Shown here piece by piece: positions 56,229 through 58,714 of a DNA stretch of 64,000 nt. The stretch comes from Ciceribacter sichuanensis (lineage in GTDB: Bacteria > Pseudomonadota > Alphaproteobacteria > Rhizobiales > Rhizobiaceae): positions 682,001-746,000 of the forward strand of contig NZ_JAMXLX010000001.1 in assembly GCF_024055605.1 (NCBI RefSeq), given 5' to 3'. The position numbers were made by a program, and so were the translations under genes. Below the pieces are notes generated by a model, which was not told the origin of the DNA, searched no databases, and saw only the letters and a program-made list of their open reading frames with translations. Position 1 is the first letter of the stretch; each line of letters opens with the position of its first letter.

Positions 56229-57560
56229 ATGATCAAACTTGCATTCTTGCTCATCGGCGGCAGAGCCTTTCGCGATGACTGGTGGGAGCCGGCAGCGCTC
56301 GGCAGCGCCATGATTGCATTGGCCTTTGTCATCGTGGCTGACCTCTCGGACGGCCTGACCATGGTAACGGTCCAGCTCTTCGGCCTGCTCTTTCTTTTTC
56401 AGGGGCTTTTCGGACTGCTGTCGACGGTCACGCGTGAGACCAATGCGGGCCGGTTTGCCGATGGCGTCAAGGCGCTGATCATGCTTGCGGTCGCATTCCT
56501 GATCATCGACACGCCGTTGAAGAGCGACTGGCTGCTGTCGTGGCTGTTTGCCCTCGGCTTTGCCTTTGACGGTCTTTCCCGTTTGGCGACGGTGGTGCTG
56601 GTCCGTTTTCGCCGCTGGGGCGTGGCGGCGCTTGCCAGCGGTCTGGAACTGATGCTCGCCATCATGCTCGTACTGAACTGGCCATTTCCGCAGAGGCTCA
56701 ACGTGCCGTTGTGCATCAGCCTCTTCCTCGCGCTCTCCGGCGCAACGATGATCCATTTCGCCCGTGCGCTGCGGCGGCACGACAGTTCGGTTTCGATCTA
56801 TTCCTTCCCCATGCTGTGCGGCCGTGGCTGGAATGAGGAAACGGCCGTCGTCATGCCGGATGACAGCCCGGATGACGATACCATCCAGAGCATGCGTATC
56901 CTCGTCTGGACACCGACCGGTGCGGCGGAGGTCGAGCCGCGACGTCCCCTTGTCGATCGCTACTTCGCGGTCCTTGACAAGGAGGGCAAGGTTTCCACCG
57001 GCCATGCGGCGGTTGAGATGGGATCCGATCTCTATATCAGCCACTGGCCGGCGGAAGAGATCGAACCGGATCGCGAGGAGATCGTCGATACCCTCTTCGC
57101 CGGGGAGGAAAACGATGTGGCCGGCCTCTTCCAGCCGTCCTACGAACAGGAAAAGATCTGCTGGACGGCTGCCGATGAAGAAGTGGCGTTCACCCGGTTC
57201 CACGCATTGCGGCTGAGAGCGTTCTGGCAAGGTTATCGCCGGCATTCCACCTATAACGTCACCAACCGCAACTGCTCGATAGCCGCGGCAGGAGCGCTTG
57301 AAGCAGCGCTCGAGGGTAGCCTCGACTGCCCGCGGCCGTGGCTGCGTCTCCTGCGACTGCTGGTGACGCCTTCCTTGTGGGAGGCCGCTTACATCCGTTC
57401 GCGGGCGGCGCACCTGTGCTGGACGCCCGGCATGGTGCTCGACTATGCGCGCGCGCTGAAGCGCCTGGTCGAGCCGGAAACCGTGCCGTGGCGTGAAAAG
57501 CTGCTTGCCCATCTGCACCATCTCGGTGCCTCGCTGAAGGCGAGGGACTTCGCCCGATGA
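56229..57560 (+). CDS. HdeD-like membrane domain fused to a possible papain-like domain
   Basis: 443 residues from the ATG at 56229 (weak ribosome site; a TTG 20 codons earlier is possible). Residues ~22-180 contain six hydrophobic helices in the DUF308/HdeD pattern. Residues ~220-443 are soluble; STGHAAVEMGSDLYISHWP (His259) and YNVTNRNCSIAAAGALEAAL (Cys349) resemble the His-then-Cys order of circularly permuted NlpC/P60 or LRAT/YiiX-type papain-like enzymes. This second assignment is from motif order only. It overlaps the following MFS gene by four bases (ATGA), so the two are co-translated. Function unknown. Confidence 0.72.
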   Translation: MIKLAFLLIGGRAFRDDWWEPAALGSAMIALAFVIVADLSDGLTMVTVQLFGLLFLFQGLFGLLSTVTRETNAGRFADGVKALIMLAVAFLIIDTPLKSDWLLSWLFALGFAFDGLSRLATVVLVRFRRWGVAALASGLELMLAIMLVLNWPFPQRLNVPLCISLFLALSGATMIHFARALRRHDSSVSIYSFPMLCGRGWNEETAVVMPDDSPDDDTIQSMRILVWTPTGAAEVEPRRPLVDRYFAVLDKEGKVSTGHAAVEMGSDLYISHWPAEEIEPDREEIVDTLFAGEENDVAGLFQPSYEQEKICWTAADEEVAFTRFHALRLRAFWQGYRRHSTYNVTNRNCSIAAAGALEAALEGSLDCPRPWLRLLRLLVTPSLWEAAYIRSRAAHLCWTPGMVLDYARALKRLVEPETVPWREKLLAHLHHLGASLKARDFAR

Positions 57561-58714
57561 GCGCGACGGATCTGTCCGCCGCCTCTGAAACGGGTACGTT
57601 GATTTCCCGCGTCGCAGTGATCCTGACTGTTGCCATGTTCGGGCTGACCTATTCCCTGAGTGCGCCACTGATTGCACTTGAGATGGTTGCAAGAGGCGCA
57701 AGCCAGAGCCTTGTCGGCGCGAATGCCGCCATGCATGCGATCGGTGTCCTCGTGGTGGCGTTGGTGCTTCCGGGCGTCGTGTCGAAGGTGGGGCCGCGAC
57801 GCCTGATCCTGTTGTCGCTCGTCGTATCCGCGACAGTGCTGGTGGCCATCGCCCTGGTCGATAATATCTGGCTGTGGTTTCCCCTGCGCTTGTTGCTCGG
57901 CATGGCCGCGGAAGCGCTGTTCGTGCTTTCCGAAACCTGGATCAACGCGCTCAGCACGGAGAATACCCGCGCCCGGTTCATGGCCATCTACACGGCGACA
58001 CTTTCGCTGGGACTCGCACTTGGTCCCTTGTTGCTTTCCCTGATCGGATCGCACGGTACGCTGCCGTTCATGGTCGGTGCCGTTATCGCCTTGGCGGCTG
58101 CATCCTTCGTGTTGTTGCCGATGGTGCGGGCGCCTGCTTTCGAAAAGCCGAGTTCCGGCAATCCCCTGCGCTTCCTCCGGCTGGCGCCGGTGGCAATCGG
58201 CGCCATTGTGCTGAATGCAGCCGTCGAGACGGCAGGCCTGTCGTTTTTGGCGCTTTATGCCGTGGGTCTTGGCTGGAATGCCGATGACGCCGCGCAACTG
58301 ATGTTCGTGATGATGGGCGGAGCGATCCTGCTGCAGCTGCCGATCGGCTGGCTCGGCGATATGTTCGACCGCCGCAAGCTGGTGCTTGGCTGCGCGCTGG
58401 TGGCTGCAGCCGGTGCCGCGCTGTGGCCCTGGGCCTTGGCTTACCCGTTTGCCACCTATGCGCTGCTGTTCGTCTGGGGCGGTGTTTTCGTCGGTATCTA
58501 CACGCTGACGCTGACGATCATCGGCAGCCGGTTTTCGGGCGGAGATCTCGTCGGCATCTATGCCCTCATGGGGCTGGCATGGGGTGCCGGCGCGCTGGTC
58601 GGACCGCTTGCGGCCGGTGTATCGCTTCAGATCGGCACGCACGGCCTGCCTGTCTTCACCGCCATCGCCTGCCTCGCTTTCGCGTTTGTCGTGGCATTGC
58701 GCCGGGAGGGATGA
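57557..58714 (+). CDS. MFS transporter, YcaD-like
   Basis: 385 residues, 12 hydrophobic helices. ALFVLSETWINALSTENTRAR (near residue 115-135) is the marker of the YcaD branch of MFS carriers, and WLGDMFDRRKLVLG is the second-half loop. An inner-membrane transporter of unknown substrate. Its ATG overlaps the stop of the HdeD/papain-like gene, which suggests a functional link. It converges on the polysaccharide-deacetylase gene 46 bp further on. Confidence 0.87.
   Translation: MSATDLSAASETGTLISRVAVILTVAMFGLTYSLSAPLIALEMVARGASQSLVGANAAMHAIGVLVVALVLPGVVSKVGPRRLILLSLVVSATVLVAIALVDNIWLWFPLRLLLGMAAEALFVLSETWINALSTENTRARFMAIYTATLSLGLALGPLLLSLIGSHGTLPFMVGAVIALAAASFVLLPMVRAPAFEKPSSGNPLRFLRLAPVAIGAIVLNAAVETAGLSFLALYAVGLGWNADDAAQLMFVMMGGAILLQLPIGWLGDMFDRRKLVLGCALVAAAGAALWPWALAYPFATYALLFVWGGVFVGIYTLTLTIIGSRFSGGDLVGIYALMGLAWGAGALVGPLAAGVSLQIGTHGLPVFTAIACLAFAFVVALRREG

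What the first reader, a model, noticed from the sequence alone, without database searches (positions are those of the whole stretch)
56229..57560. Membrane HdeD-like domain fused to a possible permuted papain-like enzyme
Six N-terminal helices of HdeD/DUF308 type are joined to a 220-residue soluble domain that carries a His in STGHAAVEMG and, about 90 residues later, a Cys in a NRNCS context. His before Cys is the order in circularly permuted papain-like folds (YiiX, LRAT, PPPDE). A membrane-tethered amidase or acyltransferase of this design, overlapping a YcaD-like carrier gene, is not something I can match to a described system. The C-terminal call rests on motif pattern only.
Basis: partly seen in the sequence, partly recalled or inferred. 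Interest (0 to 1): 0.55.

Follow-up and report, generated by a model that had tools for sequence, protein, structure and literature searches.

The report
Membrane-tethered permuted papain-like enzyme with transporter
A bacterial membrane protein usually named after an acid-resistance family carries on its predicted cell-inside end a papain-type enzyme of a kind that often handles fatty acyl groups, and it often travels with one particular transporter gene, which suggests an unstudied lipid- or toxin-handling pair.

Summary
Window 56229-57560(+) encodes 443 aa: an HdeD/DUF308-like six-helix membrane part joined to a soluble domain with His259 and Cys349, both invariant in 80 of 80 aligned sequences. 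The domain is predicted as a permuted papain-like fold: its best structural matches are RID, TseH, a PPPDE deSUMOylase and Aichivirus 2A, with Cys349 opening the core helix. Charge distribution puts it in the cytoplasm in 80 of 80 rows. The nearest Pfam family is Lnb_N/DUF4105 (lipoprotein N-acyltransferase of Bacteroides), but the window protein misses that model, and all 15 carriers tested have Lnt. The ATGA-linked MFS gene is a partner: adjacent at 55 of the 80 loci kept, in three arrangements. In two overlapping genome samples (60 and 297), every genome with a close MFS (54% identity or more) has the enzyme beside it; 12 genomes with distant MFS homologues (34-41%) lack the enzyme. Several enterobacterial copies have MASE1 and SMR neighbours. 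Best reading: a cytoplasm-facing thiol acyltransferase or lipase coupled to an exporter or flippase. Fold and coupling are supported; chemistry and substrate are inferred. New variant of a known kind.

The parts
56229..57560 (+). Gene of the fusion protein, 443 aa, HdeD-like membrane part plus permuted papain-like domain
56229..56774 (+). Residues 1-182: short N-terminal helices (2-9, 11-16) and six predicted membrane helices, HdeD/DUF308 type
   Evidence: model; DUF308 matches (sub-threshold); HdeD model; charge pattern
56880..57473 (+). Residues 218-415: permuted papain-like catalytic domain, predicted cytoplasmic
   Evidence: model; structural matches; topology
57003..57005 (+). Codon of His259, at the start of a core strand
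   Evidence: 80 of 80 rows; strand 42-47 of the domain model (residue = model number + 217)
57234..57236 (+). Codon of Tyr336, candidate for the conserved NlpC/P60 tyrosine, 13 residues before the Cys
   Evidence: invariant in A3; same spacing as Tyr115/Cys128 of YiiX as given in PMC3142127 (passages); not superposed in 3D
57273..57275 (+). Codon of Cys349, first residue of the core helix 132-144 of the domain model
   Evidence: 80 of 80 rows; model
57557..58714 (+). Partner MFS transporter gene, 385 aa, ATGA overlap with the enzyme gene
   Evidence: MFS_1 107.4 bits; adjacency; co-occurrence

Best explanation
The protein is an inner-membrane enzyme. An HdeD-like six-helix bundle anchors a permuted papain-like (NlpC/P60-type) thiol enzyme on the cytoplasmic face of the membrane (fold and side rest on prediction). 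Cys349, activated by His259, most likely takes an acyl group, probably from an inner-leaflet lipid or another amphiphile, as a thioester and passes it to an acceptor or to water (inferred from the families of this fold). The MFS protein made from the overlapping gene moves the substrate, the product or the lysolipid by-product across the same membrane (coupling supported by conserved linkage; direction and cargo inferred). It works like an acyltransferase-transporter pair, by analogy with Aas-LplT, and is most likely an accessory lipid-remodelling or amphiphile-tolerance device, since it is patchy, sometimes on plasmids, and present alongside Lnt.
For: Permuted papain-like fold matches on a confident domain model. 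His/Cys invariant, Cys at helix start, invariant Tyr 13 before Cys as in YiiX. Positive-inside rule favours a cytoplasmic C-terminus in 80 of 80 rows, 0.163 against 0.033 Lys+Arg per loop residue. MFS adjacent in 55 of 80 loci: 39 downstream, 8 upstream on the same strand, 8 divergent; convergent in a Pantoea plasmid. Among 60 relatives, 7 of 8 enzyme genomes and 0 of 52 others have the MFS at E 1e-60 or better. Among 297 genomes of the order, 8 of 10 enzyme genomes and 0 of 287 others have it at 54% identity or more. Many permuted members act on lipids or acyl groups: Tox-Act1 and TseH phospholipase, Lnb lipoprotein N-acyltransferase (PMC12994826, passages); fatty acid in the YiiX pocket (PMC3142127, passages); RID N-epsilon-fatty-acylation (PMC10924143, title and start of abstract in the listing).
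Against: No enzymatic data. Active-site geometry and pocket could not be inspected. Foldseek gave no significant match, and profile comparison with Lnb_N is weak (E 0.014, 36 columns round the Cys). PPPDE enzymes of this fold cut peptide or isopeptide bonds, so acyl chemistry is not forced. The 80 loci are the best 80 of 585 stretches, so the linkage rate in the more distant rest is unknown. Burkholderiaceae, Enterobacteriaceae, Serratia plymuthica and a few others in hand have the enzyme without a close MFS. The 54% line in the order sample was drawn after seeing the gap: 12 genomes without the enzyme hold MFS homologues of 34-41% identity, while partner MFS proteins elsewhere go down to 46-48%. 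One search scored at most 6 candidates per genome. The MFS has no close characterised relative.
Confidence: 0.5

Rival explanations
1. Detoxification pair: the membrane enzyme acylates, deacylates or hydrolyses a lipophilic toxic compound at the inner leaflet and the MFS or SMR multidrug-type transporter expels the product.
For: The recurring neighbour differs by lineage but is often a transporter: MFS, or, in 4 of the 9 enterobacterial loci in hand besides the query locus L106, an SMR 60-80% identical to that of L106, plus one of 50% about 4 kb away in L107. The three SMR proteins scanned resemble Qac/EmrE exporters but score below the curated cut-offs. Patchy and partly plasmid-borne distribution. 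PMC10318531 states from genomic contexts that DUF4105 might support resistance transporters (section 13 read).
Against: No resistance phenotype known; SMR genes are common near mobile DNA (general knowledge); the MFS is more conserved than the enzyme in several pairs, as for a fixed cargo rather than a broad drug pump.
Confidence: 0.25
2. Membrane protease or isopeptidase: the domain is a PPPDE/YiiX-like peptidase that processes or releases a membrane protein, perhaps the MFS partner, and the HdeD part senses stress.
For: PPPDE deSUMOylase is the third structural match, Z 6.1; database names include 'protease'.
Against: The two best matches, RID and TseH, are an acyltransferase and a phospholipase by the literature. 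No other gene downstream recurred widely in a crude clustering; upstream genes were not clustered.
Confidence: 0.15
3. A second lipoprotein N-acyltransferase, an Lnb relative working beside Lnt.
For: 24 of 80 members match Lnb_N at E 0.1 or better, best 5e-5; the L107 member passes the Pfam cut-off (22.5 against 22.2 bits); a same-genus genome has an HdeD-type gene next to a separate Lnb_N gene (L009).
Against: Lnb_N is named a periplasmic domain and Lnt acts at the periplasmic face (recalled), whereas charge distribution puts this domain in the cytoplasm in 80 of 80 rows. Lnt is present in 15 of 15 carriers tested. The window protein scores 11.1 bits to Lnb_N, cut-off 22.2.
Confidence: 0.07

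Closest known systems
Lnb / DUF4105 (Pfam PF13387 Lnb_N), lipoprotein N-acyltransferase of Bacteroides
   Same: His before Cys (GHT or AHT, then NCS, NCA or NCT, against GHA then NCS); nearest Pfam family for 24 of 80 members; membrane linked
   Different: Lnb_N is named a periplasmic domain; here the domain is predicted cytoplasmic, lies behind an HdeD-like bundle, and Lnt is also present; the window protein itself has no Pfam match in this domain
Permuted NlpC/P60 enzymes: RID, TseH, Tox-Act1, YiiX, LRAT
   Same: Predicted fold (RID and TseH matched), order of catalytic residues, Cys at helix start, an invariant Tyr at the YiiX spacing
   Different: Those named are toxin domains, secreted effectors, a YiiX-type protein and a mammalian enzyme; here the domain follows the membrane part in the 79 loci aligned and has a transporter partner
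HdeD / DUF308 acid-resistance membrane proteins
   Same: N-terminal six-helix part
   Different: HdeD as I recall it is the membrane part alone; here a catalytic domain follows; no link to acid stress was tested
LplT-Aas lysophospholipid remodelling system (PMC11416262, abstract and opening read)
   Same: A lysolipid-flipping transporter paired with an acyltransferase at the cytoplasmic membrane surface
   Different: An analogy only; no relation of the MFS to LplT showed among the NCBIfam matches, and neither partner was compared with LplT or Aas directly

Membership tests
Permuted NlpC/P60 (papain-like) superfamily | Papain-like core with permuted order, His strand before Cys helix | tested here: met
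   Model; RID, TseH, PPPDE deSUMOylase and Aichivirus 2A head the list, Z 8.9 to 4.7, next row 2.4. By prediction; Foldseek alone not significant.
Permuted NlpC/P60 (papain-like) superfamily | Invariant Cys/His dyad with Cys at the N-terminus of the core helix | tested here: met
   80 of 80 rows, Cys partly selected by the scan pattern; Cys349 is model residue 132, first of helix 132-144.
Permuted NlpC/P60 (papain-like) superfamily | Conserved active-site tyrosine | tested here: inconclusive
   Tyr336 invariant and 13 before Cys as Tyr115/Cys128 in YiiX, but Tyr245, Tyr269 and Tyr342 are invariant too and no coordinates were available.
Permuted NlpC/P60 (papain-like) superfamily | Third polar catalytic residue | tested here: inconclusive
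   Candidates Ser271 (80 of 80) and Glu277 (71 Glu, 9 Asp); position not measured.
Permuted NlpC/P60 (papain-like) superfamily | Hydrophobic S1 pocket for lipid | not testable with these tools
Lnb (PF13387) | Pfam Lnb_N score over the curated cut-off | tested here: not met
   Window protein: no match, 11.1 bits in the genome scan against 22.2. A relative, L107, reaches it.
Lnb (PF13387) | Periplasmic catalytic domain | tested here: not met
   Positive-inside rule, cytoplasmic in 80 of 80 rows; a prediction, not an experiment.
Lnb (PF13387) | Stands in for a missing Lnt | tested here: not met
   Lnt over its cut-off in 15 of 15 carrier genomes tested.
HdeD / DUF308 | DUF308 or HdeD model match over the cut-off, six membrane helices | tested here: inconclusive
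   Window protein sub-threshold, 18.1 against 25 bits, no HdeD model match; 63 of 80 and 52 of 80 members match at E 0.1 and 0.01; six helices.
HdeD / DUF308 | Role in acid resistance | not testable with these tools
   No expression or phenotype data.
YcaD MFS equivalog (PRK03633) | Score over the curated cut-off | tested here: not met
   54.1 bits against 361, though it is the best NCBIfam match.

The most novel reading that the evidence does not exclude
A previously undescribed two-component inner-membrane system of Pseudomonadota: an HdeD-anchored, cytoplasm-facing permuted thiol acyltransferase handing an acylated or deacylated amphiphile directly to a dedicated MFS transporter (SMR/MASE1 versions in some Enterobacterales), a papain-fold counterpart of LplT-Aas, giving the HdeD fold its first enzymatic context.
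Probability: 0.35. Interest if true: 0.72.

Novelty: new variant of a known kind. Interest (0 to 1): 0.52.

Why it matters
The family is common (585 tblastn-confirmed stretches) and hidden behind names such as 'HdeD family acid-resistance protein', 'MFS transporter', 'tripartite tricarboxylate transporter TctB' and 'protease'. It joins two little-understood families, HdeD/DUF308 and the Lnb-like permuted thiol enzymes, and ties them to one transporter subfamily. That makes a direct test possible: does a papain-fold enzyme acylate or deacylate lipids on the inner leaflet, and does an MFS protein flip or export the product? A positive result would give HdeD proteins a biochemical setting and extend the lipid-acting permuted enzymes from toxins and lipoprotein maturation to inner-leaflet membrane chemistry.

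Tried and rejected
Tried without result: PDB sequence searches with the domain and its profiles gave only chance-level hits; the RID entry was among them at E 0.89 and 0.88. Viral contigs: 17 pattern matches, none a relative. BFVD: nothing significant. PHROGs: best 0.0088 in 1 of 15 members, no convincing family. PADLOC: none at E 0.01, so no support for a known defence system. Full-length fold search: varied helical bundles and helical membrane proteins, best Z 9.2 to a designed barrel, no papain-like row among the 50 shown. Profile-profile alignment with Lnb_N (20 of the 30 loci fetched): weak and local (E 0.014 for the joint set, 0.077 and 0.094 for its two halves; reversed-profile controls 0.17 to 0.44), global alignment failed, so I do not file it in that family.

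A crude gene caller missed neighbours that tblastn found; adjacency counts come from tblastn. A clustering of that caller's downstream ORFs showed no other widely recurring gene; small clusters reflect close relatives or SMR genes. Upstream ORFs were not clustered. Rows dropped: L043 (cut by the contig end) from A3 and A4; L048, L076, L085, L095, L101 from A4 because of shifted coordinates; in A3 and the tree the row L076 is the second tandem copy. From, 7 of 17 hits and, 2 of 10 were left out of the enzyme counts: weak hits (E 2.8e-6 or worse) to the HdeD part only. In one search, 23 of the 25 loci without an adjacent MFS were searched (L059 and L085 were not given): 12 of 23 match at E 1e-50, 9 of them at 49-61% identity and 3 at 33-39%; so 14 of 23 lack a close MFS.

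Results against the coupling: those 14 genomes, two genomes of the order sample (G152, G231) and G027 have the enzyme without a close MFS; 12 genomes of the order sample have distant MFS homologues (34-41%) without the enzyme. The Fisher values (2e-8 and 3e-14) ignore relatedness, and the second uses the 54% line drawn after seeing the data. The 80 loci are the most similar of 585. Papers: PMC12994826, PMC10318531 and PMC3142127 by passages (plus section 13 of PMC10318531), PMC11416262 abstract and opening; others by search listing only. The primary Lnb paper was not seen; it is known here only through PMC12994826.

Full report
What is there. Window 56229-57560(+) is a 443-residue ORF, followed by an MFS gene at 57557 with an ATGA overlap. 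Upstream lie a leucyl aminopeptidase-like and a holC-like ORF (my naming from the translations, not searched). The nearest named relative is Rhizobium daejeonense, 97% identical over the full protein.

N-terminal part. Six long helices are predicted between residues 19 and 182. The window protein is only a sub-threshold DUF308 match (18.1 bits, cut-off 25), but 63 of 80 family members match DUF308 at E 0.1 or better and 52 of 80 match the NCBI HdeD model at E 0.01 or better. Lys+Arg are concentrated in the N-terminus, loops 2 and 4 and the segment after helix 6 (mean 9.0 per protein against 0.95 in the other three loops; 0.163 against 0.033 per residue). All 80 rows agree in sign, so both ends should be cytoplasmic (loop limits set by me from the model).

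C-terminal part. Pfam and NCBIfam give no family for this part of the window protein, and the PDB sequence search only chance hits. Alignment of 80 sequences leaves 27 invariant columns, all in this part, among them G258-H259, Y336, Y342-N343, R347-N348-C349-S350, W398-T399-P400-G401 and D405-Y406; the stretches round Cys349 and W398-Y406 were also the patterns of the scan. The domain model (75 sequences, pLDDT 82.1, pTM 0.78) places His259 at the start of a core strand and Cys349 as the first residue of a helix. Of 999 chains re-aligned to the model, 6 reach Z 2. The top four are RID (Z 8.9, rmsd 3.8, 133 aligned), TseH (7.8, 4.3, 135), PPPDE deSUMOylase (6.1, 4.0, 108) and Aichivirus 2A (4.7, 3.4, 89). 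I recall the last as an LRAT-like, H-box/NC protein. The remaining two are at Z 2.4 and 2.1. The tool notes that a best Z of 7-8 is common for models without a clear match; what speaks for this one is that the leading rows share one permuted fold. Foldseek's own E-values were above 1.

Relation to Lnb/DUF4105. Ten of 15 soluble-domain sequences match Pfam Lnb_N at the permissive limit of E 10, best 0.0013; 24 of 80 full proteins match at E 0.1 or better, best 5e-5. One plasmid copy from Pantoea soli just passes the cut-off and is annotated DUF4105. Lnb_N proteins from the same phylum show GHT or AHT and then NCS, NCA or NCT where this family has GHA and NCS, but profile comparison is weak. I read it as a neighbouring group within the permuted superfamily, not a member. 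In Bacteroides this family is the lipoprotein N-acyltransferase Lnb, and Tox-Act1 and TseH show phospholipase activity (PMC12994826, passages). An Lnb-type role here is unlikely: the predicted side of the membrane is wrong and Lnt is present in 15 of 15 carriers tested.

The partner. A homologue of the window MFS lies beside the enzyme at 55 of the 80 loci kept: 39 downstream in the same direction, 8 upstream in the same direction, 8 divergent. These 80 are the best of 585 stretches, so the rate in the rest is unknown. On a quick tree of 80 rows the arrangements are clustered (10 changes in all, shuffled mean 35.3), and MFS presence needs 8 changes, consistent with an old association re-arranged and sometimes lost. 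Of 23 genomes searched among the 25 loci without an adjacent MFS, 9 carry a close one elsewhere (49-61% identity, E 1.5e-106 or better), and in 5 of those 9 it sits next to a second copy of the enzyme. In 60 relatives, 7 genomes have the MFS at E 1e-60 and all 7 are among the 8 with the enzyme. In 297 genomes of the order (an overlapping sample), 8 have it at 54% identity or more and all 8 are among the 10 with the enzyme; a further 12 genomes without the enzyme have MFS homologues at 34-41%. In each of these 7 and 8 genomes the two genes are neighbours by their coordinates (same calls).

Other contexts. Nine enterobacterial loci are in hand (L081, L088, L098, L102, L105-L108, L173). Five have a MASE1 protein directly upstream (L098, L102, L106, L108, L173). 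An SMR transporter is close by in L106, and 60-80% identical ones in L098, L102, L105 and L108; L107 has a 50% one about 4 kb away; Methylobacterium-type loci L083 and L096 have 35% ones. In Pantoea JZ2 (L173) the convergent neighbour is a 46% homologue of the window MFS. The version of the gene in L105 occurs in 3 of 5426 E. coli genomes at megablast sensitivity, all on plasmids, named HdeD family acid-resistance protein. A transporter thus often recurs even where its family differs. This fits the remark that DUF4105 might support resistance transporters (PMC10318531, section 13).

Mechanism. Supported by computation: the fusion, the fold, the invariant dyad, the cytoplasmic side and the conserved transporter linkage. 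Inferred: thioester chemistry at Cys349, a lipid or amphiphile as acyl donor or substrate, and transport of substrate, product or lysolipid by the MFS. The working analogy is LplT-Aas, a lysolipid transporter that binds a cytoplasm-side acyltransferase (PMC11416262, abstract); homology to it was not tested directly.

Novelty. A search for DUF4105 or PF13387 in the held library found two papers. HdeD does not occur in the main text of either, by term look-up. Searches pairing HdeD with DUF308, protease-like domain, papain-like or MFS transporter terms listed no title or abstract opening that describes the fusion or the pair (one search listed 12 of 707 papers and 8 of 11); most subscription journals are not held. 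The pieces are known kinds; the combination and its partner seem undescribed as far as these searches reach.

Noticed in passing
L009 1339-1815 and 1857-2894 (same-genus genome G035): A separate HdeD/DUF308 gene (61 bits) lies directly before a gene for a 345-residue protein with a full Lnb_N domain (161.6 bits): similar modules as neighbours instead of a fusion.
   Followed up: partly
L084 4157-8978 and L108 4066-9478: A stand-alone Lnb_N/DUF4105 gene lies close to the fusion enzyme, with a MipA/OmpV outer-membrane protein gene nearby in both loci.
   Followed up: partly
L105, L106, L108, L173: The fusion protein is named 'MFS transporter' (L105, L106, L173) or 'tripartite tricarboxylate transporter TctB' (L108) in the plasmid collection's annotation, which is misleading.
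   Followed up: yes
L158, L161, L162: Stand-alone Lnb_N genes sit next to an ORF of about 440 codons whose start looks like a lipoprotein signal (my reading).
   Followed up: no
L076 5350-8235: Two tandem copies of the fusion enzyme follow the MFS gene in Dyella sp. ASV24; genome G551 has three copies.
   Followed up: no
L103 3233-4399 (minus strand): A weak MASE1-like match (E 1.7e-9) lies on the opposite strand upstream of a Caballeronia copy.
   Followed up: no
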